This document shows positions 1 to 63,219 of a stretch of 64,000 nt of DNA, in pieces. The position numbers were made by a program, and so were the translations under genes. The notes under the pieces are model-generated. The model did no database searches and had not been told where the DNA came from. It worked only from the letters and a program-made list of their open reading frames with translations. The DNA lies in the NCBI GenBank assembly GCA_032358255.1, contig JAULBX010032257.1:62001-126000 (forward strand), written 5' to 3'. This stretch comes from Heterotrichella gracilis. Lineage: Eukaryota; Sar; Xanthophyceae; Tribonematales; Xanthonemataceae. Position 1 is the stretch's first letter. The number at the start of each line of letters is the position of its first letter.

Positions 1-3000
1 ACGCCGCCGTGCACCTGCGGGTGGGGTGGCGGGTGTGGGTGCGTGGGTGTGGGTGTGGACGTGGGTGTTGGTATTGGTGTCGGTGTCAACATCGCAGTGC
101 TTCTGCCTCAAGATGCTTATGTTACGCATGGATGCCAGTCAACAATGACCCAATGTGTTTGTGCATGCGGAGAAAGACACCTACATATGGCCAACCCCAA
201 ACCCAGCATGGCCCTCCACCCACCTTGAACGTCACTTTCACGCTAGGCCCAGCCGCTGCCCCAGAGTCCTCCCGCCTCCCAAACCCCATGCGGGAAAGCA
301 GCCCCGACCGCCGAGGGGCACCCATCCCCTCTGCCCCCTCCCCACCACCCCCGCCACCCGCATCCGGCTGCCCAGTGGTGGTGGTGGGTGTGTCGGTGTC
401 GGTGTCGGGTGGTGGTGGTGGTGGTGGTGTGTCGTTGAGTACCTCCAGGTGGAGCGATACAAGTGGCGCCTCCCCGCGAAGGCCAGCCATGGCGGTGTTG
501 AGGCCCCTGGAGAAGGGAGGGTGGGTGGGTGGGATGTAGGGTGGTGGTGGTGGTGCATGCATGCCATTCAGAGAATGGCGGGGCAAACATTACAACTAAA
601 AGGCAATAGAAGGGGCAGACTCCAACCAACGAGATACCACGTGGATGGTATTGCAATGCCTGAGATGGATGAGGCGCACATCTGTCAACTTCACATAATT
701 TCGTCTTAATCCATCTCATGACGTTGGTATCAACCCCCAGCACCCCTCACCTTGTGAAGGAATCCGACCTTGCATGCCCCCCCTTGCCCCCACTGGGCGG
801 CTTGCCAGCTATTGCCACACCATTGGCCGACCCCAGCCCCAGCTTCTTACTCAGCTGCTTCAGCACTGATTCGCCTGTGGCGGGCTGCGGGTGGGGCGGG
901 GGCAGCGGCTGCGAATTCGAGGCAAAGGGGGTGGATGGGGCTATGCCTAGGGTTTCGCCCCTGAGCCCTAGGGTTTCGCTCCGAGGCACGGCGGCGTGGA
1001 GGTGATTGGGGTCCGGGTGGGGGGGTGGCCGCGGGTGGGGTGCTGGGGCGGTGGGTAGCCCCAGGGGGGTGAAAGGGGGGGTGGCGTTGGGTGGGGAGGT
1101 GGGGATTGCGCCGTTGGGATGGGGATGGTAGTCGGGGGCGGGCGCTTCAGCGCTGCCGGGGCCTGGGAAAGGGAAACGCGGAGGGTGTTCAGCAGGGTGT
1201 AAATGAACTTCCTTGGTATATAGAGTGGTTGTCATATATGCAAGGTTTTTAACAGGTGCATAGGGTTTTGAGCAGGGTCTAATCGAGGACTCACCTGGCC
1301 CCGCTGCCGCGTGCGACCCCATCCTCCCCTCTCCATCCGCCCCTTCTCCCCCCTCCATGGCCTCCAGGGAGTCGGCAGTGTCCATGAGGGGATCACCATC
1401 ATCACCGTTCAGCACTTCAATGTACAGCATGAAGGGGGCCTTGGTCCTGCGGGGTGTGGGGGTGGGAAGAAATGTGAAAAAAGATGGTTGGGGGGTTATG
1501 AGCACCCAGATGTACAGCATGAAGGGGGCCTTGGTCCTGTGGGTGCGGGGGTGAGAGAAATGGGAGAAATGGTGGTTGGGGTGTTATGAGCACCTTGATG
1601 TAGAGCAGAAGACTTGGTCCTGCCGTGTGGGTGGGGGGAAAAGTGATAAAGAGTAATTTTACGACTCGAGTGACTGAAATTTGAGGTCCAAACTACGTCA
1701 ATATACAGCAATTCTATTTACCTACATTCCAAAACTACAGCCAGATTTGCAGTCAACCTTGCGCATGCGGCGCCAGGCAGTTCAATCCTGGCATCGAGTA
1801 TGCCTTTTGTACTTTGAAGAGGGCCGAAAATCCCCCTCCAACCACACACCTCCCCAACACCCACCATCCCACCCACCCACCTGGAATTGAGCAGCACACT
1901 CTCCTTGTGCGCCAGGCGAAGCACCCTGTCGTTGTGCCTACCCATGGGGAACCACACAGCCACACCGCTGGCAGCCGCGTGCGCAATCTCCCGGCTGATG
2001 GCCTCGAGCGACTTGCGCAGCGCCCAGCGGCGGTCCTCGGGCGCAAAGGCGGTGAGGCGGGAGGAGGCCTCGCACAGCACCTGCGGGTGGTGGTGGTGGT
2101 GTGTGTGTGTGTGGTTAAGGGTGGGCAGGTAGGTGGACATGTATGAGGACAGAGGATCGTAGAGCATTTGCTGAAAGTGTATGTGTGGCCGTGAAACTGT
2201 ATACACCCCGCTGGGTGTATACGCCCCACTTCCGCCCCCTTCCATTCATGCATGTCGGCTCAGCAAGTCGTGCACCCACCCGTCCCCCCAGCCCCCATCC
2301 ACAAAGCCCCAGCGTTGTGGTTTGTCTTCGTCGCGTCAAGGAGGGTTAAGCGGCGGGCGTGGGCTGGATTACTACATGCCCCCTCCCCACCTCCAACATG
2401 TGGCCACATTGCAATGTGTACACCCTACCCCACCCCACCCAAAAACCCATCCCCTCCCACCCACCCACCTCCACAAAGTCCAGCGTGGCGCCAAAGGTGG
2501 TTTGTCGTAGTCGGGGCGAGGAGGGGGGGGAGGCAAGGGCAGCTCGCTCATCGGAGCTCGACACAGTGCCTGGGCCCCCGCCTGCAGAGGGTGGTGGGGG
2601 CAATCAGTGGGTGTGGATGGTTGGGGGGTATACAATGGTGAATAGGCTGTGTAGGGTTTAGGGTTTAGGGAGGCAGGGTGCCAACAGTAAACGTGGAAAA
2701 AAGGGAACTCAGCCTGTACAATGTGCTCCGTCTCCATTTTGACCTAAGGAAACCTTCATACTAGTACACAAGTTTTGCCTTCATCTGTACATCGTACACT
2801 GGCACCTCCCCCCTACAAGGTACCCTCACCAGCAGGGCGTCGGGCTGCGCCCAAGCTGTCTGCTGGACCCCTCGCCCTCGCCCTAGCCCAACCCTACCCA
2901 GAACCCTACAACATACCCCATCAGCACCCCCCACCGCTCCCATCCTCCGCACCCCTAACATACCCTCGCCCTGCTAAAACATTAACCCCTTCCCCTCCCC

Positions 3001-6000
3001 TACATTCCACACCCTACCCACATGCTACCCGCCCTCGCCCAAACTGAACCCTACCAGAACCCTACAACACACCCCACGTACCCTCACCCGCGGTGAGGCT
3101 GCGCTCCAGCAGTCCACTGACCCCCTCACCCTCGCCCAGGTCGAACTTGAGGCGCCTGTAGCGGTCCTGGTGCAGGGCCATGGAGGGGGCGGGAGTGGGG
3201 CTGAGGGGCAGGGGGCGATCGGGGGACATCGGTGGGGGGCTGCGGATGGGGGGATGGGGAGGTGGTTGGTGGGTGTGGGGTGTGGAGGCGTGCGGAGGAT
3301 TGCCAATGATGCACACATCTGCTCAGCCCCATGCATTGGACAGCCTGCAGAGCAAATGATCCCCTCCAGGCCCTATCCCCCGCATGCTGGAGGTAGATGC
3401 ACACTTTAAAGCCCTCGTCAAACCCTAGCACATGCCTTCATCTCTCCCAGCAAGCAGGCAAATCCCTCAAGCCCCTTGCTCCACACACCACCTCCACTAC
3501 GCCCATCCCATCGGCACCCCCGCCCCTCCCCCTTCTATCGAAATATTACTCCACGAATACTACAGCCAGGATCCCCATGCACCCAGGAGGAAGGATGCAC
3601 ACCCTGAAACCCTCCTGGAAACGCTTCCCAAACCCTTATTCACGCACTCGACAGCCCCTGGCGCGCAAATGAGCCCCTCCAGCCCCTGGTCCCCATGCAT
3701 GCTGGAGAAGATGCCCTCGCCCAGCCCATCAGGTGACGTGGGGCGCGACAAAAAGTCGGTGGGTGAGGCGCAGCCGCTGCGGGGGTCCGCGGGGTCTGGC
3801 GACAGCCAGCGGTTGGGGGCGGAGGGGGGGCCCTGGCCGTCGGAGCTGGTCCTGGTGGGCCACCTGGGGGTGGAGTGGTGGTGGGTGGGTTTGGGTTAGG
3901 CGGTGATTGGTGGTGGCTGTGTGTGTGGGTGGACGAATGATGGTGGCTGTGGGTGGGTGGATGCTGGTGTGTACATGCGTGGGGTTGTCGGTGTTGGTCG
4001 CGGTGCCGTGTGGGTGGCTGCGGATGTTGGCATGCGCTCATGCAGGGCACTCAACACCTCAAACCCTAATCTAGGGTATGTAGCCTTGCCCTACCTCTGC
4101 GTGCGGAAGTTAGGGCTGAATGTTGGGCTGCCCAGCGGCTTGGATGGCTGGGGGCTGAGCGGCAGCAGCTTGGTGTCCCGGAAGGGGGGCTCCTGCAATC
4201 CCAGGGATGGTTCTGTGTTACTACATTTGACATGATTGATCGATTAAGGACTATTAAGAGTCGCGGGGATGGTGTGCGTACCCAGGGATGGTACCGGTAT
4301 GGTAACAATGCATGGATCCCAGGAATGGTGCATTATGATGGGGATGACTTGGGAATTCAGCAATCACAATAGGGATGGTGGTGATGCCAGAAATGATGCA
4401 CCATATCTTCAATTCCAGACATGTAGTTCTGGCACAGTGCATTACTGCTGATGGTACTGATCTCATGAGAGTAGGGTGTAGGGTCCGGGGTAGCGTGTAG
4501 GGTGTAGGGTCTTCCAAACCCTAACGAAGGGTCCTGCGCCTCACCCAGTATCCCTCCAGCGCCGCGCGCTCACACCTGTCCCGCAGGTCAGCAATGTAGC
4601 GGTTGCGAGGCTGGTCCTGGGAGATGGCCAGCAGGATCCAGTACACCTGCCACATGACAAACCCTGTCGTACACTGTGCCAAAGAACGATGGGGTGAAAA
4701 GAGACTGGCGTTCAAGATGCGCAGTGCATTCAAATGACAAGTTTGGTTGGCTTTTGAACGCAGCCGAAAGCAGCCGTGAAAGCAGCCGGGCTGGCCTACA
4801 CAGCGACAGGCAGCTCGGCGCTGACAATAGCTACACCACTTGCGGGTACTGCACTAATTTGATGGACCATCCCCTGTGGTGTGGTTTTGGTGGAGTGCAC
4901 AGTGCACCTGAATACAGCTCCGAGGAAGCCGCATTGTCTTGTTACCTCCATCACCGCCCTGCATGACCTTCTAGCCTACACCCGCCTACCCAGCCTTAGC
5001 CCATTGTCACATCTGAAAAAAAGCTAGATGTTATATTGTCCCACCTAAGGGGGTTTGGAGAGGGAGTTGAAAATTGGCAATATGCATGCATATGGGAAAT
5101 TGCCCATACATGGTAACCTGTGAGATCCGTTGGCTTCGCCGTAGGTTTTCTTCTCTTCCCTGCTGTCGTTGACCGCGCTGTGGTTACATACCTTGGGGGC
5201 GATACATGGCAACTGTGCACACATGTAAACCACCACCCGCTCCATGTAATCGGCCTGGTATCCAACCTCTCCCTTCCAAACGATGCTCTCCCATGAGGGG
5301 CTACCAGTTGCTGCAATATGCCCTTGACCCATGCATTTTCTTTGGGCTGATCCCCCCCCATTTCCTCTCCCAATAGGATGCCTTCTCACGAGGTCTATGC
5401 TAGCTCCTATGCTGCCTCAACCCTGCACTTCTCCTTGAAATCCCCCTATGCATTGCGTAGCTTGACCGCTATCCTCAGCGACTGCACGCACAAGTCCACC
5501 AGCCCGCGCTCCTTAACGCGCTCCACCATATGCCTGGCCACAATTTCTCCCTAAGGATTTCTTCCCATGAGATCTATGCGCAGCTGCTGCAGCTCCTTAC
5601 ACACGCCAATGCCGTTACATCCACCCGCCCCTAAGATTTCCCCCACCCCTACACCCCCACCCCTCCGCACCGCCTACCTTGACCGCTATCCGCAGCGACT
5701 GCGCACACAGGTCCACCAGCACGCGCTCCACCGGGTGGCCCGGCTTCTGCACCAGCAGCTGGCAGATCTGGGACAGGTACTGCTCCACGTCGGCCTCGTG
5801 CAGGCTGTACATGCGGTTGCATAGGTAGTCCTGCACCCCCGGGGAGGTGCTCTTGAACAGGTACCTGCAGAGGGTGGGCAGGGGGCATTGGCAGGTGGGT
5901 GGTGCCCGGGCTAAAGTGTGGTTGCTGGTATTGTTGGGGTGCACAGGTGTTGTTGGAACCCTGGGGAGGTGCTCTTGAACAGGTGCCTGCAGGCAGGGGT

Positions 6001-6806
6001 GTTGTTGTCGATAAGGTGGTGGTGGTGGTGGTGGTGGTTCGTTGTTTGGTGCACGGAGGTGTGGTGGTCGGCCTCTACATGCGGTTGCAGAGAGGAAACC
6101 TTTACACTGGGGAGGTGCTCTTGGACAAACGCTTGCATAGGAGGCCCTTGTGAAGGGTGATTCCCGCATGGCCAAGGGCGGCACCCTTGATTTACGGGGT
6201 GGGTGCTGGTACGGTACCATATGCACTCATGCACTTTTTGGGAGGTGATCAGGGTGCTGCAGGGAGAGAAGGTGCACAGCGTGCGTCCAGCTGGGTTGTA
6301 CTGGTGGGAAAGGGCAAGTGCTGGGCCCCAAGGGGTGTGACTAGGTAGGACTCATATATGCACCCAATATGGTATTTCTTGGTTTCCTGTCGCCAATAGT
6401 GATGGCCAGCTGGGTAGTGAGCTTGGTACAGGGTCAGTGCTGGTACTCGTGGTGCAGTGTGCAGTGGTGTCAGAGGTTGTGCTTGCTGACAAGACATGTG
6501 GATGGGTTGTTGCCATCGTGAAGTAACCTGCAGGTTGCTGCCCACATGTGACGCAGGCGTAACCTTGTTGGAAAGGTATTGCCAGTGTCTGGTGGCAATA
6601 CCAGGCGCCTGGCAAGGGTATGGGCAGCACCTCCTGATCACACCTATCAACCCTGCGCCCCCACCTGATCCATACACATGGTGTGCACAATGCTCCCACT
6701 TGCCAGCACAGGCTATGCACACTTACGTCGTGGCAATCCATGCGTCAAAGAAGTCCGAGTCGAAGAACCGAAGCAGCAAGTCTGTCTTGCCTCCCTTATC
6801 AGTCAT
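1..6806 (-). CDS. PI4KB: Phosphatidylinositol 4-kinase beta (type III), N-terminal two thirds; runs off the left edge
   Basis: Converts phosphatidylinositol to PI4P at Golgi/trans-Golgi membranes in known family members. Exons on the minus strand with matching phases: 6806-6727, 5864-5678, 4646-4545, 4192-4095, 3863-3648, 3239-3088, 2581-2469, 2080-1881, 1446-1295, 1162-751, 506-443, 367-224 (640 codons). Residues 1-123 hold the lipid-kinase accessory region: LLLRFFDSDFFDAWIATT, then SPGVQDYLCNRMYSL and WILLAISQDQP, the same order as in plant PI4K-beta. Residues ~125-316 are a serine/proline-rich linker. Residues 317-433 contain the second conserved block (GVAVWFPMGR, ESVLLNSRTKAPFMLYIEVL). 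After another low-complexity stretch GLNTAMAGLRGEAPLVSLHLE follows. The catalytic domain is not in the window, so this is an edge effect, not a truncation. The start at 6806 is the first ATG after an in-frame stop and is followed at once by conserved sequence. Introns contain several exon-edge copies. Confidence 0.9.
368..430. repeat. GGT/ACC trinucleotide tract
   Basis: Near-perfect GGT repeats with GGTGTC interruptions lie in the intron between the last two in-window PI4KB exons. Open frames reading His, Gly or Trp runs through it are artefacts of the repeat. Confidence 0.8.
1486..1640 (-). repeat. Two copies of the acceptor and start of PI4KB exon 9
   Basis: GATGTACAGCATGAAGGGG followed by GCCTTGGTCCTG at 1508-1540 is nearly identical to the acceptor side of exon 9 at 1420-1448. 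A third, more diverged version (TTGATGTAGAGCAGAAG, CTTGGTCCTGC) lies at 1596-1625. The copy at 1446 is taken as the real one because the reading frame continues from it. Confidence 0.8.
2285..2345 (-). repeat. Degenerate copy of PI4KB exon 7 end
   Basis: The minus strand carries CGACGAAGACAAACCAC and GCTTTGTGGATGGG, an imperfect copy of CGACTACGACAAACCAC and ACTTTGTGGAGGTGGG at the end of exon 7 (2510-2465). Confidence 0.65.
2845..2925 (-). repeat. Degenerate copy of PI4KB exon 6 end and donor
   Basis: On the minus strand this reads GGCGAGGGCGAGGGGTCC, then GCAGACAGCTTGGGCGCAGC, then GGTGAGGGTACC. It parallels the real exon 6 end (GGCGAGGGTGAGGGGGTC, TGGAGCGCAGCC, GGTGAGGGTACG at 3140-3080), including the splice donor. 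Confidence 0.75.
3337..3440 (-). repeat. Degenerate copy of PI4KB exon 5 end
   Basis: The segment 3339-3392 matches 3649-3707, the 3' end of exon 5 (shared CAAATGA, CCCCTCCAG, CATGCTGGAG). It lies in the intron between exons 5 and 6 and is one of the exon-edge echoes of this gene. Confidence 0.65.
5461..5532 (-). repeat. Degenerate copy of PI4KB exon 2 donor edge inside its intron
   Basis: This stretch repeats, with a few changes, the plus-strand sequence at 5679-5745 (CTTGACCGCTATCC, CAGCGACTGC, GTCCACCAGC, CGCGCTCC). It lies about 150 bases downstream (in gene direction) of the real exon end at 5678, so it is a duplicated exon end in an intron. Confidence 0.75.
5940..6150 (-). repeat. Two degenerate copies of the start of PI4KB exon 2 in the preceding intron
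   Basis: Read on the minus strand, 5990-5945 resembles the exon start (HLFKSTSPGFQQHLC against YLFKSTSPGVQDYLC). The stretch 6142-6070 is a more diverged copy that still encodes the 'LQPHVEAD' shadow of the same segment. Each copy is preceded by an acceptor-like TGCAG or GCAAG. They sit upstream of the real acceptor at 5865. Confidence 0.75.
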
Positions 6807-10933: not shown

Positions 10934-11066
10934 CCCTAGGGCTTGCCGCAGCACCCACGTGCGGCCCAACTTCTGATCTCCAGTGGAAAGGAAAGGGGGC
11001 TGTTGGAAAGGAAATGAGCGTCAAAGTCGGTTATCTTTTCTAGGGTATTGACCCTCGGCCAGTGAG

Positions 11067-14000
11067 ATGACTGGGCGGGCCTCTGGGCGCAGCCTGTTTC
11101 GCCTGGCGCACCAATGGGGCACCGCAATGACCTCACCACCAGTACCAGCACCAGCGGGACCAGCAGCAGCCACCGCCACCATCGCCAAAACCCTCCAGAA
11201 GGGTATTCGCACCCTCACCGCACCCTACCGCCCATGGGCGGCGCCAGGGCGGGGCCACCCCCCCACCCCACCTCACCGCCCAGCCTTCACCACCGCCCAG
11301 CCCCCACCCCTGCCACCCCACCCACCCACCCTCCTCCAGCGCATCACCCCTGGCAGGAAGGCCGCCATCGCCACCGCCGCAGCCACCGCTGCAACCACAG
11401 GGGTGGTACTATATATCGTGGCAGCAGGGGAGGACACCGGGGCCGGAGCGGTGGTGGGTTCCATCCCGGGGACCATGCGCACGCTGGGGTGGTGCCTGGG
11501 GGCGGGCTGGGCCTACCGCCAGCTCAAGCAGAGGTACCCGGAGGGCGAGGGAGGGGAATGCAAGGTGGGACTGAAAACTCACAAATATGTTGCTTTGTAA
11601 TGAGCCCTGGCGCGGGTCTTTTGCCTGCTTTATGAGTCGCCCAGGGGAATCATGGGGACGCTGGGTGGTGCCTGGGTGTGGTCTGATCGCCAGCTGTCAA
11701 GCAGAGGTACTCGGATGGCGGAGGAGGGGAGTGCAAAGATGGGGGCAGAGCCCTGTGGTGGCATTATAAACTTGCTGAATTTCATTTTTTAAAGTACATG
11801 AATGAATGGAGTTACTTGTTTAGTGCAACAAAATTATGTGTGTGCTTGATGTTTTATACAAAAGGCAGCAACTAGTGCAGGTTTTCCTTCGACAGTAGGG
11901 ATTCGTCATAAACTCACCCATCCCCACACCCCGACACCCATCTGGGCCCGCTCCACCTCGCAGGCTGCCTACTCCGAGGTTCACCAGCGCTATGCTGCCA
12001 AGCTGCTTCAGCTGTGCTCCGCCAACGGTGGCGTGTACATCAAGGCGGGGCAGCTGGCGGTGTCCATTGCGAGCGTGCCGCTGGAGTACAGGAGGTGGGC
12101 GGGGTTTGTGCTGGGGTGCAGGTTTACCAGGCCAGGATATACATGCAGCGGTGCGGCTTTGCCTGTGTCTTCTGGGGCCTTGTTTTGGGCTGAAGTCCCA
12201 AGGGAAGGAGATAGAGGGGCGGGGCAGGGTTTGGGCTGTGGATTTCTAGGACCGCGGCCCACCCCCTCCCTCCCCTCCCTCTAATTGCGCCCCTCCCTCC
12301 CCCCATGAAACCTGGAGGTGCTCCCCGGGACCATGCCCCTCCCCAGCCTGTTTTAACCACAAACACACACCTCACCCCCTCCACACCCATTACACACAAC
12401 CCTCCTTCCCCTCCTCAGGACCCTGGAGGTGCTCCAGGACCGCGTCCCCCCCCGCCCATTCGCCGAGGTGGACCGGGTACTAGAGCGCGAGCTGGGTGCC
12501 CCCGCCCACACCCTCTTTGCGCACTTTGACCGACAGGCAACCGCAGCTGCGTCGCTGGCGCAGGTGCACCGCGCGGTGACGCATGGCGGGGAGGAGGTGG
12601 CGGTCAAGGTGGGTAGGTTATGGCGGGGGCAACATGGGGAGGGAGGTGTGGGGAAATGGAAGGACAGGGGGTAGACCATGTACTTCCAGGCGAGCTAGGT
12701 GTGCTTGCTTACCCTGGTTAGGGTATGCACTGTGGCATTAGCGACAGGCCACCCTGGCAGCGTCGCTGGCGCAGGTGCACCGCGCGGTGACGCATGTGGG
12801 GGAGGAGGTGGCGGTCAAGGTGGGGTGGTGGGGATGGAAGGGAAGGGGTGGTGGTGGTCGGGTACGATACTTACCGCCAGGTGCAGCCTCTCTTTCACAA
12901 TCCAAAGACCTCCAACTACTTTGCCTTATACTTATTTACCAATCCCCAGATGCAGCCTGGGGAGCCATAGCACGCTACACAAAAGTTTTCTTACTCCCAC
13001 TCTCCCAGTTTTCCAATCCCCAGGTGCAGTACCTGGGACTGGAAGGATCCGTGGTAGCAGACCTGGCCACCCAAGCAGCCCTCACCCAAGCAGCCAAGCC
13101 ATTTCCCCCCTGAATATGCCAAATATTTTAAAATATCTCTCACCATCCTCGTCGTGGCCTTAAGTCAGTTTTATCATATTATCTAAATTCCGAATCCTTC
13201 ATTTTCTAATATATTCAGGTGCAATACCTAGGATTGGAAGGATCCGTAGTAGCAGACCTGGCCACCCTCTCCGCCCTCACCCAAGTAGCCAAGGCATTCT
13301 TCCCGGAATTTGAACTCGGCTGGCTGGTGGTGGATCTGCGTAAGAACCTCGCCAGGGAGCTGGATTTCGCCCAGGAGGCGGACAACGCGCGGCATTTGGC
13401 GGAATTGATGGGGGCCCGGGATGACGTGGCCGTGCCTGGTGTGGTTTCGGAGCTGAGCACTGGGCGGGTGATCACTATGGAGTGGGTGGAGGGGTGCAGG
13501 GCTTCGGATGTGGAGGGGATGCGCGGGTAAGGGGATGGGGGTGGGCACGGGAAATGTGCGCCCTCTGGCGGGTTTAGTGTGCATACCCCACGCCGTACAC
13601 CACACACCACACATCCCTGCCTTTCTGATTTCAACCCTCACGCCCTCTTCACAGACTGCTAACCTATCTGCAAGTAAAACTCAGCTTGATCTGCGTTTTA
13701 CCATGTAAACCCTGCCCATAGCACAGGTACCAACTGCAGGGCTTCTTCAGGTTTTGAGGTGGCCTCCTGCTGCTGGACGTTTACCCTCCCCAAAACCCTA
13801 AAAACCCCTTCAAGAACTTAAACCCTGTCCCAAACCCTACCACTGTGCAGGTACCACCTGCGGCCCCGAGAGGTTGGTCTTTTGCTGCTGGACACCTTTG
13901 CCGAGATGACATTTGTGCACGGCTTTGTCCACGGGGACCCGCACCCGGGGAACATAATAGTGCGGCCCAGACCAGGGGGGGACAGCTGGGCGAGGCGATG

Positions 14001-38400: not shown

Positions 38401-39050
38401 GTGATACCCCCACCCCACCCCACCCAGCACCCCACCCCCACCTCCTTTAACCCCCCCTGCGCAGGTCACATTTTTGGAGCTGCAGTGTGGTGTGGGGATC
38501 CCCACATCCGGATGGGCCTGGTGACGGTATTTAATAATCCAAAACCCTAATAATAATATTAAAAAACTGCGCAGGTCACATTTGAGGAGCTGCAGCGAGG
38601 CGCGGGCATGAGCCTGCGGGAGTGCCTTGTGATGGAGAACCGCATCGTGAATCACATGGTGCTGGGGCCATCGGACTTCTACGAGGGGGTGCGTGCGGCG
38701 CTCATTGACAAGGACGCAAGCCCAAGGTGGGTGGGTACTGATGGTGGTGTGTGGAGTGAGTGGTGGTGGGTGGGGAAGGGCGGTGGGGTGTGGCGGTTGG
38801 TGGTGCCCTGTGATGGAGAACCGCATCGTGAACCACATCGAGCCTATTACCCTATTCCCAAGTTATGTAAACACAATGTACCTCCCGTTGCTCAACCTCC
38901 TCCTCCCCCCCCCTGTGCACCCGCAGGTGGTCCCATGGGTCTGTGGCGGAGGTACCTCCCCATGAGGTGGAACGGTTCTTCGCCCCCTTGCCCCCGCACG
39001 CTGAGCTGGCGCTGCCCCAGGCCCGCCAGCTGCCGCAGTCTCGCCTGTGA
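35424..39050 (+). CDS. HIBCH: 3-hydroxyisobutyryl-CoA hydrolase (CHY1/HIBCH type), peroxisomal
   Basis: Hydrolyses 3-hydroxyisobutyryl-CoA in valine breakdown. Nine exons in phase: 35424-35450, 35635-35681, 35807-35840, 36190-36273, 36552-36625, 37380-37636, 37823-38136, 38575-38726, 38927-39050, giving 370 residues, normal for the family. Crotonase-fold signatures include [52 protein letters not shown] (oxyanion loop, ~115-117), [14 protein letters not shown] with the family's catalytic Glu and Asp (E139, D147), then [20 protein letters not shown]. The protein ends SRL, a type 1 peroxisome signal, as plant CHY1 enzymes end in a PTS1. Exon 1 is only 9 codons (MAGTNGTDE), chosen because its donor and phase join straight to the conserved TLNRP block. 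Exon 6 is the last of four tandem copies. Confidence 0.93.
35878..35912 (+). repeat. Copy of HIBCH exon 3 end and donor
   Basis: GTACAAGCATGGTAAGATGG then GGCACA at 35882-35907 duplicates 35830-35855, which spans the exon 3 donor. The two copies are separated by CCCTAAA repeats. Confidence 0.9.
36065..36115 (+). repeat. Copy of HIBCH exon 4 start
   Basis: GGTGGAGTCAGTGATGGGGG and TGTACAGCCGCTGAACTGG copy GGTGGAGTCTGTGATGGAGC, TGTACAGCCGCTGGGACC at 36189-36224, with a stop replacing the Trp codon. Confidence 0.88.
36790..37377 (+). repeat. Three tandem ~195-bp copies of HIBCH exon 6 start plus its intron
   Basis: Units start near 36793, 36985 and 37180, before the real exon at 37380. Each contains the exon segment ([15 protein letters not shown] and [10 protein letters not shown] or a decayed version) followed by an intron piece ending in AATAGGTTTTTCAGGCGCG (absent in the first). 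Copies 2 and 3 are close to the real exon. Copy 1 has a stop (YQMKY then TAG). Confidence 0.95.
37700..37760 (+). repeat. Copy of part of HIBCH exon 6
   Basis: TGTGCCATGCCGGAGTGCGC and CATTGGGCTTTGATGG copy TACGCCATGCCAGAGTGCGC, GATCGGGCTGTTTCCGG (37517-37555), the segment encoding the catalytic-site MPE. Confidence 0.85.
38325..38560 (+). repeat. Two tandem copies of a segment overlapping HIBCH exon 8 start
   Basis: GAGCTGCAGTGTGGTGTGG, GGATCCCCACATCCGGA and GGGCCTGGTGACGGTA occur at 38335-38387 and 38478-38530. Both resemble the beginning of exon 8 (TTTGAGGAGCTGCAGCGAGG), and the second is preceded by CGCAGGTCACATTT as is the exon itself. A further copy of the exon's middle (TGATGGAGAACCGCATCGTG) lies at 38812-38840. 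Confidence 0.88.
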
Positions 39051-46314: not shown

Positions 46315-49236
46315 ATGCGCAGCCTGGCGGGGGCGGTGCATCGGGCGGGGGTGGGGAGGGGGGCGCACCTGGTGGGGAGTGGGGGCCGGGGGGCGGGTGG
46401 GGGGGGGGAGGCGGGGCACCACGCCATTGCCGCTCGGTTGGAGGGCAGCATGGGGTTGGCGCGGAGGCAGCAGGTGAGCCAGCGGGTGTGTGGTGTGGGG
46501 AAGGTGGGAGGTAGGGGGTGGGTAACCCCAGATGTAGGTGCAGGGGCTGTGTGGGGGGTGGGGGGTTGTAAATTGCTGCCGGGTTGAGCATGGCATGGGT
46601 GAGCAGGATGGGGTCTTGGCCGGGGTAGTATGGGTGGACCCTATAATAGGGTTTGTGGAATGGGTTGACCTGGGTGCACCTGGTGGTAAGGAGCTACGAG
46701 GATTTTTGCTGCAATGCTAGCCCAGCCAAACCCTATGTCAGGGTTGTCCATGTGGCAGCCAATCTGCATGCGCCAGCAGAAACCCCCCACCTCCCACACA
46801 CCCCGGACACGGCGCCACCGCCCAGCAGGACCCTCCCACATACACCACCCACCTACGCCCACTTCATACCACACCTAAACCCACACCCCCGCCCCATGCA
46901 CTCCCCATCCCCATCCCCACCCTCCAACCCGCCAACCCCGCAGGCCCGGCGCCTCCAGCAGCAGGACCGCATCTCTGACCAGACGGCTTCCCTGATGTAC
47001 TGCGCGTGCAACGGCTCGGCGCTGGCCTTTGCGGTGCAGCAGGGGCAAGGGGTGCAGGTGGAGGGGTGCCAGTGCTGCGGGTCGAGGTGCGCCGCCACCC
47101 CTTAGGGTTTAGGGTTTTGCGTTGAGGCTCGGTTGAGGTTAGGCAGCAGGGGCAGGGGGTGCAGGTGGAGGGATGCCAGTGCTGCGGGTCGAGACGGGCG
47201 GACACTGTGTGGCCTGCGGGGGTGCTGTGGTGTGTGGGTTGGCAGCTACACGGACAGGTACTTGGGATGGCCCTTGCGTGCATGCCTTTCAGGTTCGCCC
47301 CGGCGTTTGCGATGCAATGAGGGCGGTGCTGGCGGGCTGCCAGTGCTGTGGGTCGAGCTGTGCGGAGGGCAAATACCCTACCTATAGGGGTTAGGGTCGA
47401 GTTTTAACCATTCCTTGCCTGTGGGTCGAGCTGTGCGGAAGGCAAATACCCTACCTATAGGGATTAGTGTAGCAGTCAGTGAAAAGGGCGGGTTGGATTG
47501 GGAATGCTCGTAACATATTACTGATATGTTACTTTTAGGGTTTGAGTTTTTGCCATCCCTTGCCCGTGCGGGCAGGGCTGCTTGGTAGGTACAGGATGAC
47601 GTCACCCTAGTCGACTGGTGGTGAGGTATGTGACATAGTGGTTGCTGACTACCCCCTCCCCTTTTGCAGCCCCGATTCGTGCCCCCTCCCCACCCCACCA
47701 GCCGGGCCCCACGCCACGCTGGGAGAGGTGGGCATGGCCACATTCACGGGAGCAGGTGCGGCCCAAAACCCTAGCATACCCTCGCTGCTCACGGGAAGCT
47801 GCATGCGCACCAGCCACATGATGTGGTTTAATCAAATTAATTAAATTTCAGTTATCGCATTCAGTATATTCTTTGCCCCCTCAGCCCCCTGCTCGCACTC
47901 TACAGCTGCATGCGACACAGGCACAGGCTATGGGTTTCATTCTCGCTCTTTGATACAGCATCCAACCTGTTGCAAGCATTTCTGGCAGCTAACATGTTGC
48001 AAATTATAAAATGGATGTTTTACCTCGATTTCCAATATGTTTTCCCTGTTGTCCCTCAGGCGCCGTCATGCTCCTGTTGCTGACCATGTACAGCTGCATG
48101 CGACTCATGCGCCACAGCAGGAGTGTGCGGAGAGGGATACCGCCCAGGGGCAGACCGCCGCCCACGGAGGCGCCGCCACTGCCAGGTGTGTGCTCTGTAC
48201 CACACATGCATGCCATGTCTGTACCAAACATGCACGCCATATGGTTGCCACGCATACTTTGTACCTATGGGTGCTCTCTAATCACACGTGGTCGTCATGT
48301 CCTGTGCTGGTGGTAGGTGCCTGTGGCTAATGCTTGCCTTATGTGGTGCATGCAGCCTCTGGGGATTATTATGGGCTTATCATAGTACCCCGTTTGTGCG
48401 TTCCTTTTTCTGTCCCTCTATCCAACCCGTCTACCAATACCCGACGCAGATACCTGGCCGGGGACGATCGAAAGTTTTACTTCATTACGTATTCACAGAT
48501 TATTTAGCGAGCAGGGTAACTTTTCATGCGCCCCCAACAGTCTTGTGGGCCTGGGTTGCCTCCCTGAATGTGACTGTCAAATAAATCTTGTAATCTTGTA
48601 ATAATTCAACACTTTAATGCCCATGTGCCCGCCCCCCTGCTTCACCCCCCTCTCCTCCCCACCCACGCAGAGCTGCCCCCCTTGGATGTGCGCGGCCCCG
48701 GCCCAGGCGTGGAGGGGATGGCAGCAGAGTGCCCCATCTGCATGGAGGAGGTCATGTGTGGCGATGCCACCTGGCGGGTGCTGCCATGTCAGCACGGCGT
48801 GTGCGCCACCTGCTACCCGCGCCTCATCACCACGCAGTACCAGCAGCAGTGGGGGGTGAGGAGGCACCAGCCGTGGGCGCAGGCAGGGACGCAGCCACAG
48901 GCGGAACCACCAGAGGAGCCACAGGCACAGGCGGGACCTCCGGCAGATTCGGAACCCCGGCCGCACGCTGAGGCGGAACCACATGCGGGACCACAGGCAC
49001 AGATGGAGCCTCAGCCAGGGGTAGGAGCAGCCTCCCCCCCTCCCGCGCCCACAACCACCAGCGGTGGTTTGGAGATCATGGACCCGGAGGTGTGGTCGCC
49101 CCCATCCCCACCCGCACCCCAACCCGTGCCGCAGCCGGTGGGGGTGCAGGGGGAGTGGGTACCCCACGGTGGGTACCGGTACACCTGCCCGCTGTGCCGC
49201 AAGGAGATACCCTATTTATCTACCCAGTTGGTGTGA
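46315..49236 (+). CDS. Membrane-associated RING-finger protein (putative E3 ubiquitin ligase)
   Basis: Five exons in phase: 46315-46473, 46944-47086, 47670-47755, 48060-48185, 48671-49236, giving 359 residues as drawn. Residues 1-53 are Gly/Ala/Arg-rich. Residues 54-100 include ISDQTASLMYCACNGSALAF and a Cys cluster EGCQCCGS. A hydrophobic segment (GAVMLLLLTMYSC, ~128-142) is followed by basic residues, so it is a likely membrane anchor. The RING starts CPICMEEV (192-195), continues LPCQHGVCATC, and ends TCPLCRKEIP, i.e. the C3HC4 pattern, which in this family binds two zinc ions and recruits E2 enzymes. Between the sixth and seventh ligands lie 124 residues, far above normal. A 279-base in-frame stretch (48856-49134) bounded by GT and CCGCAG is very likely an unrecognised intron; removing it gives a 266-residue protein with a normal loop. 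The start is uncertain. Confidence 0.75.
47155..47465 (+). repeat. Three copies of RING-gene exon 2 end
   Basis: The exon end (GGGGTGCAGGTGGAGGG, TGCCAGTGCTGCGGGTCGAG at 47050-47086) recurs at 47157-47193, 47338-47360 (TGCCAGTGCTGTGGGTCGAG) and 47420-47432 (CTGTGGGTCGAG). The last two are followed by CTGTGCGGA(G/A)GGCAAATACC, so they are also copies of each other. Confidence 0.9.
47885..47945 (+). repeat. Copy of RING-gene exon 4 start
   Basis: CTACAGCTGCATGCGACAC and AGGCACAGGC resemble TGTACAGCTGCATGCGACTC, ATGCGCCACAGC at 48087-48120. It lies in the preceding intron. Confidence 0.7.
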
Positions 49237-55120: not shown

Positions 55121-57726
55121 TCACTCGCCAGGCCCTGCCTCGGGCAGCCGCGGCAGGCTGCTATGGAAGGAGCCAGGTGGGCCCAAGCAGGGCACCTTGG
55201 CAGCCCGCTCAGCCACCTCCCCCACCACCGCCTCGAGCACACGTTTCACCCCCGCTACCCCCGCCGCCCTGTGCGCCCCCGCCACCGCCTCAGCCCACAG
55301 CCGCCGCCCCTCTTGGCACTGCTCCCGCTGCCTGGCCATGACCGCGCACAGCGCCACAGGGGACAGCGCCTTGGCCACCCGCGGGCTCAGGGGGCGCTCG
55401 GAAGCAAAGGGCACAAAGCCGTGCGCCCCGCTGCAGAACTGGCCCAGTCTGTCCGCCAGCAGCATGGCGTCCTCTGCAGCCGCCGGGGGGGCGGATGCCA
55501 GCGCCTGCGGGCTCCCAAACCGCTCCAAAAGCGCCTGTGCGCGCTCCTTGAGATCCTCTGCACAGGAATTTGAGGATTCACGCATTGCAATTAGTTAAAC
55601 AACTGTAATACAATAGCAGAAAACCAAATGAAAATGATTTCGTTCTTTAGCGAAATATTGTGTAAAAGGTGTGTGCCGCAACAAAAGGTGTGCAACAAAG
55701 GGAAGCACACACGTCCAAAGGGTATTAGTTGCTTCACTACTCTTGGCCAGTTTAGGTTTTATACACAAATTTTAGGGTTTCACTCCTCACCTGCCAGCTG
55801 CGCATCAGTGGCGCGGGTCATCGCCACCACCAGGAAATCCACTGGCATGTCATCCAGGTCCACACCTTCTGTCCCCAGCAGCCCCTCCACCAGGCACCAC
55901 CGCATGTACTGCCGGCACACCTCGACTTGGTCAAGCAAGCCCCGCCGGGCCACCAGCAGGCACACCCGCTCCCTCGCCTGCTCTTCATGCAACGCCTCCC
56001 ACACAGTGTCGTTGTCGTCTGGGTGTAACAGGCCAATGAGCCCCCCATCGGAAAGCGCCTCCAGGGTGGCTTGGCTGACATTCTCCAGGGATATGCGTAG
56101 CTGGTAGTGCAGATCTGGCTGCTCAACCCCCAGCTTATCGCACCACAGGTAGAGCTGCTCGGCTAGTCCCAGCGTGCAGGACAGGATACGGTGCGAGTGC
56201 TCCAAGTTAAAGATGGTGCTGCCCAGCACATGCCTGCAGGGTCCCAGTGCGCGTGTCAAAAATGGTTCAAAGTTTAGGACTTAGGGTACACGATTAGGGT
56301 GTTTCTCAGCACATGCCTGCCCAGCCAGCATGTGTGTCAAATATGGGTTAGGGTTTAGGGTGTTTCCCAGCACAAGCCTGCGCAGCCCCAGCGCGCGTGT
56401 CAAAGAGTGTGTAGGGTTTACGGTTAAGGGTATTTCCCAGCACATGCCTGCCACCACAGCACGGGTGTCAAAGATGGGTAAGGATTTGGGGTCTGGGGTG
56501 TTTCCCTGCACATGCCTGCACATCTCCAGCACGCGCTGCACCTGGTACTTGTCGCTCAACCGCAGCGCAGCCAGCAGGCGTGGAACCTATAGGTATGTGT
56601 CGGACAAGTCCCTGCCATTTGACCGCTCTCCTTCAACAACACAACAAGTAGAAATGGATTATTCAATCAAAATGGAATTTTGTGTCCGGTTAGGAAAATA
56701 ACGCTGGAATCATTGATGGAAAGGTCATGCAAGCAGCTAATCATGAATACCAACAGGAAGTGGATCAGCACAACGGCTGCAGCTCAGAACTAAGGGAGAT
56801 ACCGACATTACCTTCAGACGTGGAAGGCTCCTCCCCCCAATGTAGCACTTCATGGTACATGCAGTCCAATGCATGCAGCCAATAGTACTGCCAATAGTAG
56901 TGACATGAAGTAAGTCAGCATAAAGGCTTCAGGACAGGAGTGAAGGAGGGTTACCTTCAGACGTGGAAGGCCCTCCCCCCCCATGTAGCACCTCATGGTA
57001 CATGCAGTCCAGCAGGATGCTCATGTCTGCCGACGTCTCATCCAGCGCCAGCCGCCCGCCAGTTGGCAGCCCAGCGGTTGTGAGCAGGTCACGCAGCACA
57101 TCCGAGCCATTGGGCGGAGCACACAGCATGAACCTGTGCATGAAAATAGCAATGAATAAAATAAAATCAAGTGGTGAGCAGGTCTCGCAGCACATCCGAG
57201 CCATTGGGCGAAGCACACAGCATGAACCTGTGCACTAAATTGAAAAATTAATGTAATAAAAAAGAGGCGAGCAGGTCTCGCAGCACATGCGAGCCATTGG
57301 GCGGAGCACACAGCACACAGCATGAACCTGTGCACCAGAAAACACCGATACATACATAAAGCGTGTTAGAACAGCCGCGTTGGTTGAAGAAGCGGCATCA
57401 GCAAAGTGATATGCATTGCCACCATATTGGAAACGAGAAATTGGCATGCCCGAGTCAAAGTTGAGGTGGCACAAGTACAAGGCAAGGCAGCTACCAGTAC
57501 CAGGCAACTCCAATTCACTTTACCTGTGTACCACGATTTCCACCCCGTTGCTGCATCCCAGGGAGAGGTCAGCCAGGCCAGGGATTCGGTCATACTTGGT
57601 GGCAGGGTTTTCAGCCGTGTCCACAGGTGGGAGGAACCTGCGGCAGAGGTTTCTCCGAGAGGCTTCATCCCCCCACCGGCAAGGGTCGAGGCCGCAGTGG
57701 ATACAACGACCGGTGGCACTTGCCAT
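55121..57726 (-). CDS. BTB/POZ-domain protein
   Basis: Exons (minus strand): 57726-57524, 57133-56955, about 56590-56535, 56233-55791, 55557-55121. Residues 1-67 contain a Cys-containing N-terminus (MASATGRCIHCGLDPCRWGD) and then DRIPGLADLSLGCSNGVEIVVHR leading into FMLCAPPNGSDVLRDLLTT, LDETSADMSILLDCMYHEV and VPRLLAALRLSDKYQVQRVLEMC, which together follow the beta-strand/helix order of a BTB domain. Such proteins commonly act as cullin-3 adaptors. The C-terminal half is helical (HSHRILSCTLGLAEQLYLWC, TLEALSDGGLIGLLHPDDND, ATDAQLAEDLKERAQALLER). The phase between 56955 and the VPRLL exon does not match, so a small exon or sequence error is missing there. The next intron (56534-56234) appears to use a GC donor (TGCAG|GCATGT). 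Introns and the 5' flank contain repeated exon edges. Confidence 0.75.
56300..56555 (-). repeat. Four tandem copies of the BTB-gene exon 4 edge
   Basis: The plus-strand motif CCCAGCACATGCCTGC ... GCGCGTGTCAAA (real edge at 56222-56263) recurs near 56308, 56368, 56436 and 56503 at about 65-base spacing (CTCAGCACATGCCTGCCCAG, CCCAGCACAAGCCTGCGCAG, CCCAGCACATGCCTGCCACC, CCTGCACATGCCTGCACATC). Each carries a CAGGCATGT-type potential splice site on the minus strand. Confidence 0.9.
56808..56880 (-). repeat. Copy of the BTB-gene exon 2 end and donor
   Basis: ATTACCTTCAGACGTGGAAGG, CTCATGGTACATGCAGTCCA and neighbours at 56809-56878 duplicate 56951-57014, the end of exon 2 with its donor. Confidence 0.93.
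57165..57335 (-). repeat. Two copies of the BTB-gene exon 2 start with acceptors
   Basis: GTCTCGCAGCACATCCGAGC and CATTGGGCGAAGCACACAG (57182-57232), and a second copy at 57271-57332, repeat the real exon start (57089-57135), each including CATGAACCTGTGCA, the reverse of the acceptor. They encode FMLCASPNGSDVLRDLL and a version with a CAPPNGSHVLRDLL core. Confidence 0.93.
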
Positions 57727-57905
57727 GGGGCCAATGAAGCTGGGCTAATCCAAGGTGTGGTTGAGTCACACCCTTACGTAGGGTTTATGCGTGGCACAAT
57801 GAACCACTGGCCATGGCGCCGATGGAGCTGGGCTACTCCAAGGTGTGGTTGTGGGGGGAGTCACACCCTGAGGTAGGGGTTAGGCGTGACCCACTGGAGC
57901 CACCT
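57713..57905 (-). repeat. Duplicated BTB-gene start region
   Basis: CCATGGGGCCAATGAAGCTG, AAGGTGTGGTTG and GAGTCACACCCT (57723-57772) recur at 57811-57870 as CCATGGCGCCGATGGAGCTG and so on. The second copy places another ATG upstream on the minus strand that opens only a 9-codon frame. Confidence 0.85.
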
Positions 57906-60353: not shown

Positions 60354-60415
60354 TCACCCACCAAGGCACAGGCCAGCACAGAGCCACGATCCCAACCCCC
60401 TCAGATCCCCCCTTG
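60175..60415 (-). repeat. Copies of the transporter-gene 3' segment
   Basis: The minus strand at 60365-60300 reads GDWIDVQWQRVVAGAARR, a decayed copy of DDWLDAQWQRLVTACAK at 60535-60483. Separately, AGGCCAGCACACAGCAAAATC (60183-60203) and AGGCCAGCACAGAGCCACGATC (60369-60390) are copies of each other about 185 bases apart. Confidence 0.7.
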
Positions 60416-63219
60416 CTGACCTAATGATCCCACAGACTACCCGCCGCCCCCCAAGGGATCTCAAAATAGTATAATTGCACACCTTTGCGCACGCAGTCAC
60501 CAGGCGCTGCCACTGCGCATCGAGCCAGTCGTCCACTGCCGCCCCCGGGGAGCCATACGCCAGGCTGTAGGCGGCTGCGTGGAAGCCGGTGCCCCCCATG
60601 ATGTTGCCGATGGTCACGGGGATGAGGTTGTGCCACAAAAAGGTCCCCACGGAAATGCCCGATCCCAGGACCATGCTCATGGGGATGAGGAACATGTTTG
60701 CCACGCAATGCTCAAACCCCATGGCCACAAAGGCCGAGATGGGCAGGAAGATGCCGATGAACTTGCCTGCGGGTGGTGATAGATACATCATTATGTATTT
60801 CCTTTATGTGTAGCCGTTTTCGTTTTCTTACTCATTTTTTCGTTTTATTTTTATCTCTCAATTTGCAGATAACTTGCGGGTACCAGTAACATGCTGGCGA
60901 CAGATCAGCGGCGTGGCTCACGTGCATTCAAGCAGTACAGCAATCAAGGGCTTGTTTAAATATGTAGAAGTGAGAGCACCATGCACAAGAATGGTCAGTA
61001 AGGCTTAATACCGATATCATTTTATTATATTTGTAAGGCTGAAGACAACCACCCACCCGCCAAGTCATAGGCCCCATTTGCCTGCCACACCGCCAGGTTG
61101 ACTAGCCAGTTGCACAGCAGGCCCTTCACCATGGCCACAGCCCAGGGGTAGTGCGTCTTCTTCAGCGCAAGGTGGACTAGAAAATCGCTCCTCCCCTTAA
61201 ATACCTCTCCAGCTGTCATGAGGCCAACCAGCATGAGGGCGCCTGCAGCACCACGGCAAATGTTGGCTAAAGACAAGGTATCACCATGCGTCTTATGTGG
61301 GCGAGGCTTTACGCCCATGACCACGATCTCATCTTGCCCTTCACCCACCTAATGGGCAGTTAAGTTAGGAGTAAAAGTGAGTTCAACCTTCCGGCGCCAG
61401 ATACCACACCATCACCACATATCACAATGGAAAAATGCACATCTGCATATCCGCATGGCCCATCAGACATTGACAACTGCTTTGCTGAGGGGGGTCTGGG
61501 CGATGCCACTCTTGAGCAGTCAAAGAGCCACCTGGTGCACAGCCAGCACAGGCAACCCACTCACCCAGTAGATTAGTGAGGTAGGACAGCACCCATGAGG
61601 AGGCCCAGCCCCAGGAGCTGACCTTGCCCTCCACCCGCCCAATCAGCATGTAGGAGCAGTTGGAGGTGAACAGGTCGGTGTACAATACAACACCGCCACC
61701 ACACAATTGAACATCTGCAACCCCGCATGGACCTGCCTAATCACCAGGAACCCCACTCACCCAGTAGATTAGTGAGGTAGGACAGCACCCATGACGAGGC
61801 CCAGCCCCAGGAGCTGACCTTGCCCTCCACCCGCCCAATCAGCATGTAGGAGCAGTTGGAGGTGAACAGGTCNNNNNNNNNNNNNNNNNNNNNNNNNNNN
61901 NNNNNNNNNNNNNNNNNNNNNNNNNNNNNNNNNNNNNNNNNNNNNNNNNNNNNNNNNNNNNNNNNNNNNNNNGGCGCCTGACACCACCACCAGCGTGAGG
62001 CCAAAGGGGAAGCCAAAGGAGGAGAAGAGCAGGTTGAACACGCCGGGCTGGGAGGTGCGGAAGTCCTCGTTCAGCTGGCCACCTGTGGGCGGAGGGTTTA
62101 AGGTCAAGTTCTGGCCTGGTTGGGGTTTGGGTTTTGGAATGGGAACAGTGTAAAATGGTGCTTGTAGGGTTTGGGAACGTTCTGAAAGGAGGTAATGGCA
62201 GAATTTAGGGTATAGGTCTGGCCAACTGCATTCAACTAGGGTTTAGGGTATATTTAAGGGTTTATTGCCTTATATCTGCCCGGGCTGCGTGCGGTTACGG
62301 CTAGGGTTTCGCCTTAGCACAAACCCTACACATACCTGCCAGGCTTTGCCCATGTGTAGGGTTTAGGGTTTTCGTGCTTGGCCAAATTGGCATACCAACC
62401 AGGGTGCAACGGGAAAACCCTAAACCCTAGCCGTGTGGCCCACCAGCTATGGTGCAGAGGGCCCCACCCTAAACCCAACAAGGGTGGCCGCACCAACCAA
62501 GCTTGCCCTCTGTAACCGTAAACCCTAGGTACACGACGTACCGACTAGGTTGCAGAGCGCAAACCCTAGGCCTATGTAGGCGCCCGCCAGCACCCCCAGC
62601 ACCACCTTGCTGGTGAACCTTGCGTGCACTTTGGTTGCTGAGATGTCCGCTGTGTGGGCGTATATGTCTGGCGGGCTGAGGAGGGAGTACACGTGGACGG
62701 GGCCTGGGTGGTCCTGGACCTGAAAAAAGTGTGGTTTTAAACTTCAAAATGGGGTTGGTTGGGGTGTAGAGGTGCAGGTGTGTGGGCAAATATCAAGCTG
62801 CCAACAACGAGATACAGTCTGCCAAGCAAGCCTCATTTCGCAGACACATTGTGTGCCAGGGCACAGATGGCAAGCCAACCAGGTCTGATTAGGAGTAAGC
62901 ACGGGGAGGGTACATGTGCGAGTTGGAGGTGGAGATCCACTTTGTCTGTTACTCTCCTTGGCCACCCAATACCCGTGAAAGATGCAAGAGGACAATATTT
63001 ACACTACAGCACCGTCCCAGACTCTCCACCTCCTAGACGTACGTGTGAATCAGCGTGGGGCTTGGAGGCGCTGGGAGGGGCGTGGTGGCGCCCTGTGGTG
63101 TTGCTTTGTATGTGCTTGCTGGTGGATACTACATGGGCAGGCTCTGTCCCTGTCTCCATGGCCTCCATAACCACGCTGTGCTCCACGGCGTCACGGCGAT
63201 GGGAGTCGTAGCCGTTCAT
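60354..63219 (-). CDS. NAR1: Formate/nitrite transporter family protein (NAR1-like), interrupted by an assembly gap
   Basis: Channel of the FNT family; algal NAR1 proteins move nitrite, formate or bicarbonate across chloroplast or plasma membranes. Exons: 63219-63043 (possible transit region, phase fits), 62719-62542, 62082 into the gap, a gap-side segment ending at 61761 or 61565, 61242-61057, 60766 to the stop at 60354. Family segments: VYSLLSPPDIYAHTADIS, VVLGVLAGAYIGLGFALC, FGFPFGLTLVVVSGA, DLFTSNCSYMLIGRVEGKVS, SYLTNLLG, KGLLCNWLVNLAVWQANGA, IFLPISAFVAMGFEHCVANM (with the conserved pore His) and GNIMGGTGFHAAAYSLAYG. The 100-N gap removes the GAE part before LFTSN. Exon 4 exists twice because of a 196-bp tandem duplication. 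If AAG|GTGTGC at 60483 is a donor rather than coding, the C-terminus differs. The first exon is the least certain. Confidence 0.85.
61565..61872 (-). repeat. 196-bp tandem duplication of a NAR1 exon next to the gap
   Basis: The segments 61565-61677 and 61761-61872 are nearly identical over the DLFTSNCSYM ... LTNLLG exon and its donor, offset by 196 bases. The second runs directly into the Ns. Confidence 0.95.
61873..61972. other. Assembly gap of 100 N
   Basis: Exactly 100 N, the usual placeholder for a gap of unknown size. It falls inside a coding exon of the NAR1-like gene and inside a tandem duplication, which probably caused the assembly break. Confidence 0.98.

What the first reader, a model, noticed from the sequence alone, without database searches (positions are those of the whole stretch)
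1..63219. Introns throughout the window are filled with degenerate copies of neighbouring exon edges
At least nine of the multi-exon genes (PI4KB, ABC1K, CCT4, RCC1/vWD, TPM, HIBCH, DsbA, RING, BTB, NAR1) contain intronic copies of the adjacent exon start or end, usually including the splice site. Seen directly: more than 30 such copies. Known background: intron gain by tandem duplication of AGGT-containing exon segments has been proposed, since the duplication supplies both a 5' and a 3' splice site. Inference: this genome shows that process, plus continued intron growth by repeated duplication of exon-intron borders, at unusual density. It may be a lineage-specific mechanism shaping intron length and generating decoy splice sites.
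Basis: partly seen in the sequence, partly recalled or inferred. Interest (0 to 1): 0.88.

Follow-up and report, generated by a model that had tools for sequence, protein, structure and literature searches.

The report
Introns growing by copying exon edges
In this green-alga-like genome many introns carry decaying side-by-side copies of the edge of the neighbouring exon, often with its splice site, which suggests that introns here keep growing through small local duplications that splicing then discards.

Summary
Self-comparison finds 36 local direct duplications and 0 inverted in the window, 74 and 1 in 28 other stretches of the genome. With self-trained gene models, 60-base exon edges match the adjacent intron in 60/381 and 57/384 cases, against 0.3% for random introns, 0/381 and 1/384 inverted, 4/285 and 3/283 on the wrong side. 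In three homology-supported genes 11 of 19 introns carry a copy. Young copies include duplicated intron sequence as well (19 of 23), and copies decay like unconstrained DNA. They are best read as tandem duplications across existing exon borders that lengthen introns; intron-gain geometry fits 2 of 123, and no introner family was found. Borders exceed uniform models 2.5- to 6-fold, but stop-codon edges carry copies too and fast intron decay could explain much, so targeting is unproven. Unexpectedly, telomere-type repeats cluster near splice sites and in duplicated units, hinting at break repair. The mechanism is known from single cases; the density is new to me.

The parts
19613..20186 (+). CCT4 exon 19613-19759 and its downstream intron with two copies of the exon end (19831-19883, 19952-19978), spacing about 122 and 117
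20187..20930 (+). CCT4 exon 20187-20417; downstream intron carries two copies of its end (20520-20579, 20668-20712) and one copy of the next exon's start (20842-20901)
20931..21467 (+). CCT4 exons 20931-21057 and 21331-21467; copy of the latter's start at 21246-21274
36626..37636 (+). HIBCH intron 36626-37370 with three tandem copies of the start of exon 37371-37636 (array from 36788, period about 191-197)
38137..38726 (+). HIBCH intron with two old copies (38324-38383, 38465-38524) of the start of exon 38575-38726
12419..13526 (+). ADCK1-type ABC1K exons 12419-12608 and 13219-13526; the intron holds a 97% copy of the upstream exon end (12760-12819) and an 87% copy of the downstream exon start (13024-13083)
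2843..3863 (-). predicted exons 3088-3239 and 3648-3863 with copies of their ends at 2843-2892 and 3339-3392
5678..6141 (-). predicted exon 5678-5864 with two upstream copies of its start (5937-5984, 6073-6127)
40368..40666 (+). copy of the start of predicted exon 40474-40666 at 40376-40431
41069..41411 (+). five-member family of 28 nt (spacing 48-151) matching the end of predicted exon 40938-41090 and its splice site; not among the 35 copies counted
   Evidence: (families D17, D18), exon
46944..47363 (+). predicted exon 46944-47086 with two downstream copies of its end (47133-47193, 47306-47357)
56850..57335 (-). predicted exon 56992-57129 with a copy of its end (56850-56892) and an array of three units (spacing 93-94) on its start side
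61313..62082 (-). predicted exon 61789-62082 of the formate/nitrite transporter gene and downstream copies of its end (61593-61652 at 98%, 61313-61358 at 74%); the exon contains the N gap 61873-61972 and its predicted end is probably about 27 nt short

Best explanation
Short stretches of DNA (period median 158, 5-95% range 91-268 bp) are duplicated in tandem across the borders of exons. When the stretch spans an existing splice junction the outermost splice sites can still be used, so the mRNA is unchanged and the extra copy becomes intron. The copy then decays freely while the exon stays conserved, so it remains recognisable as a degenerate exon edge. Repetition gives arrays and longer introns. 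Shown: the copies, their direct orientation and adjacency, inclusion of the junction, homologous intron parts in most young copies, decay without coding constraint, and presence elsewhere in the genome. Inferred: that the outer sites are the ones spliced in vivo, that the process is ongoing, and what triggers it. A trigger linked to DNA breaks near splice sites is suggested by telomere-type repeats but not shown.
For: Direct against inverted 36:0 in the window, 74:1 in 28 other loci. Edge test 60/381 and 57/384 against 0.29% and 0.30%, inverted 0/381 and 1/384, wrong side 4/285 and 3/283, mid-exon 2/74 and 0/76 (score >=20). Adjacent intron 48/390 and 49/391 against 0 to 5 of 282-349 for the neighbouring introns one or two away. 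Copies >=0.93 identical: intron part homologous too in 19 of 23 (p<=0.05); all classes 50 of 90. Codon positions 182/1707, 159/1707, 294/1691 and net frameshifts in 33 of the 111 copies with a frame. CCT4 spliced without the copies aligns over residues 23-530 to solved CCT delta chains, 681 bits. Copy identity is spread from 0.6 to 1.0, 17 of 123 at >=0.95. No second genomic copy of three window regions beyond short matches (that search skips common words).
Against: Exact tandem contiguity is weakly shown: of 38 copies >=0.90 identical only 5 have exon plus intron extents within 15 nt of the period, 16 overlap by more (arrays, or overrun of a permissive extension) and 17 leave more than 15 nt unexplained. 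In 18 of 49 copies >=0.85 the intron part is not detectably homologous, and 7 of the 31 homologous ones are out of register by more than 20 nt. Most exons come from a self-trained gene finder without RNA evidence. No second strain or species was available to show gain in time. Longer introns in copy-bearing cases (mean 474 against 326) may be partly circular.
Confidence: 0.82

Rival explanations
1. Short tandem duplications strike uniformly; borders stand out only because duplications inside exons are purged and those between intron sequences fade faster. No border preference.
For: Junction-spanning units are about as frequent as intron-internal ones in a uniform model (ratio 1.01). Predicted stop-codon edges also carry copies: 15/43, or 6/27 after removing likely gene splits; start-codon edges 4/37. 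Intron parts differ 16.9% against 6.8% for exon copies. If intron pairs were lost four times as fast the uniform model would not be rejected (p=0.10).
Against: 97 clusters: 75 border, 9 intron-internal, 10 intergenic, 3 exon-internal. Random shifting gives 49.3, 21.3, 21.3, 5.1; uniform units give about 36:35:23 for the first three classes. Simulated detection of intron pairs lasts 0.70-0.74 as long as that of border pairs; the uniform model with a factor 0.5 is rejected (p=5e-6). The excess is 2.5- to 6-fold. Ten of the 75 contain exon but no junction, and false exons may inflate the class.
Confidence: 0.4
2. Intron gain by tandem duplication of an AGGT-containing exon segment (Rogers model) made these introns.
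For: Same kind of mutation; copies often carry GT or AG.
Against: The copy abuts the opposite splice site in 1 of 63 and 1 of 60 cases; many copies include intron sequence already present.
Confidence: 0.04
3. The copies are functional alternative (mutually exclusive) exons.
For: Some copies keep frame and splice sites; 34 predicted exons were dropped because they resembled a neighbouring exon.
Against: Position 3 to positions 1-2 ratio is 1.74 and 33 of 111 copies carry net frameshifts; copies found here match exon edges.
Confidence: 0.04
4. Mobile introner or transposon insertions.
For: Some pairs have a spacer between copies.
Against: Only 9 cross-locus intron pairs with >=50 bp matches, 17 of 461 introns; only short matches elsewhere for three window regions.
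Confidence: 0.02
5. Assembly duplication artefact.
For: One 97.7% pair abuts the N gap at 61873-61972.
Against: 106 of 123 copies are under 95% identical and 33 of 111 are frameshifted; the 28 loci contain no N.
Confidence: 0.02

Closest known systems
Boundary-crossing tandem duplication in a potato RdRp gene (PMC4974935; abstract and introduction read)
   Same: A tandem duplication across an intron-exon boundary, with splice signals inherited from the parent junction.
   Different: One gene, and it created an additional intron using a donor in former exon sequence; here 88 of 461 predicted introns are affected and existing introns become longer.
Rogers AGGT model of intron gain, with the ATP2A1 example (as told in PMC4974935; two papers asked for by DOI were not held)
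   Same: Local tandem duplication supplies splice sites.
   Different: Unit is exonic and makes a new intron; that geometry fits 2 of 123 copies.
Novel Drosophila intron positions by tandem duplication or sliding (PMC2891723; abstract read)
   Same: Duplicated exon sequence, one copy becoming intron.
   Different: 25 novel intron positions there, some by duplication; not growth of old introns.
Short interstitial telomeric sequences (PMC6410037; section 2.1 and passages read)
   Same: Short internal telomere-type repeats, reported as likely results of break repair with possible telomerase recruitment.
   Different: Here concentrated near splice sites and in duplicated units; not described in the passages read.

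Membership tests
Tandem duplication across an exon-intron border | Copies in direct orientation and next to the parent | tested here: met
   36:0 and 74:1 direct to inverted; adjacent intron far above neighbouring introns
Tandem duplication across an exon-intron border | Duplicated unit contains exon and intron sequence | tested here: met
   19 of 23 young copies, 50 of 90 overall; 31 of 49 at >=0.85, 24 of them in register
Tandem duplication across an exon-intron border | Units contiguous, no unexplained spacer | tested here: inconclusive
   5 of 38 within 15 nt, 16 overlapping, 17 with more than 15 nt left over
Tandem duplication across an exon-intron border | Extra copy absent from the mRNA | not testable with these tools
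   no RNA data; CCT4 homology fits splicing without copies
Rogers (AGGT) intron gain | Copy of the exon edge abuts the opposite splice site | tested here: not met
   1 of 63 and 1 of 60
Introner elements | Many introns share one sequence family | tested here: not met
   17 of 461 introns in 9 cross-locus pairs; same-locus pairs were left out
Mutually exclusive exon duplication | Copies evolve under coding constraint | tested here: not met
   ratio 1.74, 33 of 111 frameshifted
Short interstitial telomeric sequence as repair scar | Telomere-type repeat inserted at the repair joint | tested here: inconclusive
   coverage 9-12% just outside the copies on the new-joint side; 0.191 in the intron part of units without a spacer, 0.071 in spacers, 12 of 36 spacers with any; no empty site to compare

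The most novel reading that the evidence does not exclude
Splice-site-proximal DNA in this lineage is a hotspot of breakage. Repair leaves short telomere-type (TTTAGGG) tracts and tandem duplications of the exon border, so introns are built and renewed from their own exon edges, and exon-intron structure acts as a mutational landmark.
Probability: 0.27. Interest if true: 0.86.

Novelty: new variant of a known kind. Interest (0 to 1): 0.7.

Why it matters
It points to a simple source of intron sequence that needs no transposon: local duplications that splicing makes harmless. The source can be recognised because one copy is a conserved exon, so duplication, decay and decoy-site turnover could be measured directly in strains of one species. 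It also warns annotators: a gene finder trained here called exon copies as exons (34 predicted exons were dropped for resembling a neighbouring exon; examples in CCT4). If the border preference or the telomere-type link holds, exon-intron structure would shape where mutations happen.

Tried and rejected
Intron gain by AGGT duplication: geometry almost absent. Insertion-with-filler (X-filler-X) as the general rule: suggested by single alignments, but most young copies have homologous intron parts, so kept only for some events. Head-to-head telomere order inside introns: 3 introns G-before-C, 1 C-before-G, no support. Splice-site specificity by comparison with stop and start codon edges: not clean, and stop edges are not lower (15/43; 6/27 after filtering), which counts against specificity. 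Selection against copied splice sites: no departure. Naming the organism: no rbcL match, 18S search unanswered twice; a CP26-type protein matches light-harvesting chains best, so only green-alga-like is claimed. A second haplotype to compare: none found. Literature: ten searches listed no paper whose title or abstract start reports pervasive border duplication or telomere-type repeats at splice sites; some listings were cut (25 of 218, 10 of 54, 12 of 14), five papers were opened in part (PMC8226300 and PMC3488318 passages, PMC6410037 section and passages, PMC4974935 abstract and introduction, PMC2891723 abstract), and most subscription papers are not held.

Rows dropped before counts. One search gave 32 aligned blocks; I kept 22 as exons (11 of 12 CCT4, 6 of 8 HIBCH, 5 of 12 ADCK1) and dropped the weak ones. 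L009 was left out of the gene models. Also dropped: genes with under 200 coding bases; exons under 60 bases or without 500 flanking bases (still contained predicted exons that are copies); from then on, 34 predicted exons resembling a neighbour, introns under 60 or over 2500 bases, more than four copies per edge. About 3 spurious copies are expected among the 123 from the control rate.

Full report
What the sequence is. The window is 64 kb of a 68.5 Mb, 903-contig assembly (contig C902, 62001-126000). It is 55.5% G+C with one 100-base gap at 61873-61972. Genes found by profile include a chaperonin subunit, a 3-hydroxyisobutyryl-CoA hydrolase type, an ABC1 kinase and a formate/nitrite transporter. 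The genome has light-harvesting protein exons (43 matches), and one frame matches CP26-type chains best (262 and 259 bits; that 6kac is from Chlamydomonas is recalled). I call it green-alga-like and no more.

The duplications are real, local and direct. Self-comparison with low-complexity filtering gives 36 direct pairs and 0 inverted within 1.5 kb in the window (score >=30). Eight small and twenty 10-kb loci elsewhere give 74 direct and 1 inverted; most distances are 90-300 bases. Density is uneven: five of the eight small loci and five of the twenty 10-kb loci have none, among the latter the bacterial-looking L009.

Gene models. I aligned three proteins to the window with a splice-aware aligner and trained a simple gene finder on the 22 exons kept, iterating over the window and 32 loci, L009 left out. 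It returns 14 of those 22 exons with both ends exact, in part because it was trained on them. Some exon copies were themselves called exons. The CCT4 protein spliced without the copies aligns from residue 23 to 530 to solved CCT delta chains with 681 bits, so the copies are not needed in the protein.

Exon edges against introns. For 60-base exon edges and 500 bases of the adjacent intron side, 60 of 381 3' edges and 57 of 384 5' edges score 20 or more; random introns give 0.29% and 0.30%. Inverted edges give 0 of 381 and 1 of 384; edges against the wrong side give 4 of 285 and 3 of 283; exon middles 2 of 74 and 0 of 76 (before predicted exons that are copies were removed). Against neighbouring introns one or two away the rates are 0 to 5 of 282-349, while the adjacent intron gives 48 of 390 and 49 of 391. 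In the three homology-supported genes, which do not depend on the gene finder, 14 of 38 edges in 11 of 19 introns have a copy at p<0.01. After dropping 34 predicted exons that resembled a neighbour, 88 of 461 introns carry 123 copies (63 of upstream exon ends in 48 introns, 60 of downstream exon starts in 52; 12 introns have both).

Anatomy. The copy usually reaches the junction; GT is kept in 37 of 50 and AG in 27 of 47, in 32 of 35 and 27 of 36 when aligned to the very junction, as the divergence predicts. Identity declines away from the junction on both sides, faster on the intron side. The intron part of the unit is homologous in 19 of 23 copies at least 93% identical and 50 of 90 overall; at 85% or more, 31 of 49, 24 in register. 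Median extents are 73.5 exon and 49 intron bases for a period of 119.5, but only 5 of 38 copies fit within 15 bases, 16 overlap and 17 leave a remainder (permissive). So tandem duplication across an existing border is the best reading, with complex cases; because of this spread I set confidence at 0.82 rather than the 0.85 first written. Geometry expected from AGGT intron gain occurs in 2 of 123.

Fate of the copies. Differences between exon and copy are 10.7%, 9.3% and 17.4% at codon positions 1, 2 and 3, and 33 of 111 copies have a net frameshift. A free copy beside a conserved exon predicts roughly this (inference: all sites change in the copy, plus silent sites in the exon). Identities spread from 0.6 to 1.0 with 17 of 123 at 0.95 or above, which suggests a continuing process. 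Introns with copies are longer (mean 474 against 326 bases; partly circular). The median intron is 309 bases; core-Reinhardtinia algae are reported to have medians of 198-343 (PMC8226300, passage).

Is there a border preference? Of 97 duplication clusters 75 involve exon sequence (65 of them a junction), 9 lie inside introns, 10 between genes and 3 inside exons; random shifting expects 49.3, 21.3, 21.3 and 5.1. A uniform unit model expects border and intron-internal events about equally, and intron pairs remain detectable 0.70-0.74 as long as border pairs in simulation. The excess is therefore 2.5- to 6-fold. It would not be significant if intron pairs were lost four times as fast (p=0.10). 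Cautions: intron parts differ 16.9% against 6.8% for exon copies, and predicted stop-codon edges carry copies as well (15 of 43; 6 of 27 after removing likely gene splits; start edges 4 of 37). Splice-site targeting is not established. I raised the odds of the uniform rival from the 0.35 first written to 0.40 for the milder null.

Telomere-type repeats. TTTAGGG/CCCTAAA 9-mers occur 753 times in introns, against a median of 14 over 20 units of the same composition. They concentrate 10-40 bases from splice sites and in the last fifth of introns occur only as CCCTAAA, plausibly because TTTAG would act as a false acceptor (inference). Coverage is 9-12% just outside copies on the new-joint side and near 0 in the first 40 bases inside, 19% in the intron part of units without a spacer. 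One lies within 50 bases of 45 of 176 splice sites in introns with copies against 80 of 746 without (p=1.2e-6); within the former, 32 of 100 copied edges against 13 of 76 others. Intron-internal and intergenic duplications show it in 2 of 9 and 1 of 10. Short internal telomere repeats are reported as likely results of break repair with possible telomerase recruitment (PMC6410037 section 2.1). Whether they cause, accompany or follow the duplications cannot be told here.

Alternatives. Introners: 9 cross-locus intron pairs, 17 of 461 introns, and only short matches elsewhere for three window regions. Alternative exons: rejected by the decay pattern. Assembly error: possible for the 97.7% pair at the gap, not for diverged copies.

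What is known. Tandem duplication as a source of introns is an old model with few cases; a potato gene shows a border-crossing duplication (PMC4974935, abstract and introduction), and Drosophila has cases by exon duplication (PMC2891723, abstract). My ten searches, with their limits, are in Tried and rejected; none listed a report of a genome in which about a fifth of introns carry recognisable border duplications. I rate it a new variant of a known kind.

Noticed in passing
window 1-64000 and sampled loci, introns: Introns are polarised: G 0.345 and C 0.198 in the first tenth, G 0.191 and C 0.367 in the last tenth of the sense strand (introns of 120-1500 bases).
   Followed up: partly
introns of window and sampled loci: Telomere-type TTTAGGG/CCCTAAA tracts are strongly enriched in introns near splice sites.
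   Followed up: yes
L009 1-10000 (G000 contig C1, 894458 bp): G+C 0.357, eight reading frames of at least 120 aa, no local duplications: looks like a bacterial contig, Bacteroidota-like by recall.
   Followed up: partly
window 61549-61972: A 97.7% identical duplicated unit ends at the only N gap, so the gap may hide further repeat copies.
   Followed up: partly
window 50612-54563: Gene-scale tandem repeat: three matching blocks at spacing 2580, 2630 and 2651, 75-92% identical; comparing its two members could show differences in copies.
   Followed up: no
window 26438-26671: GGTGATGGC-type repeat overlapping a predicted minus-strand exon (26480-26764); low-complexity coding or a false exon.
   Followed up: no
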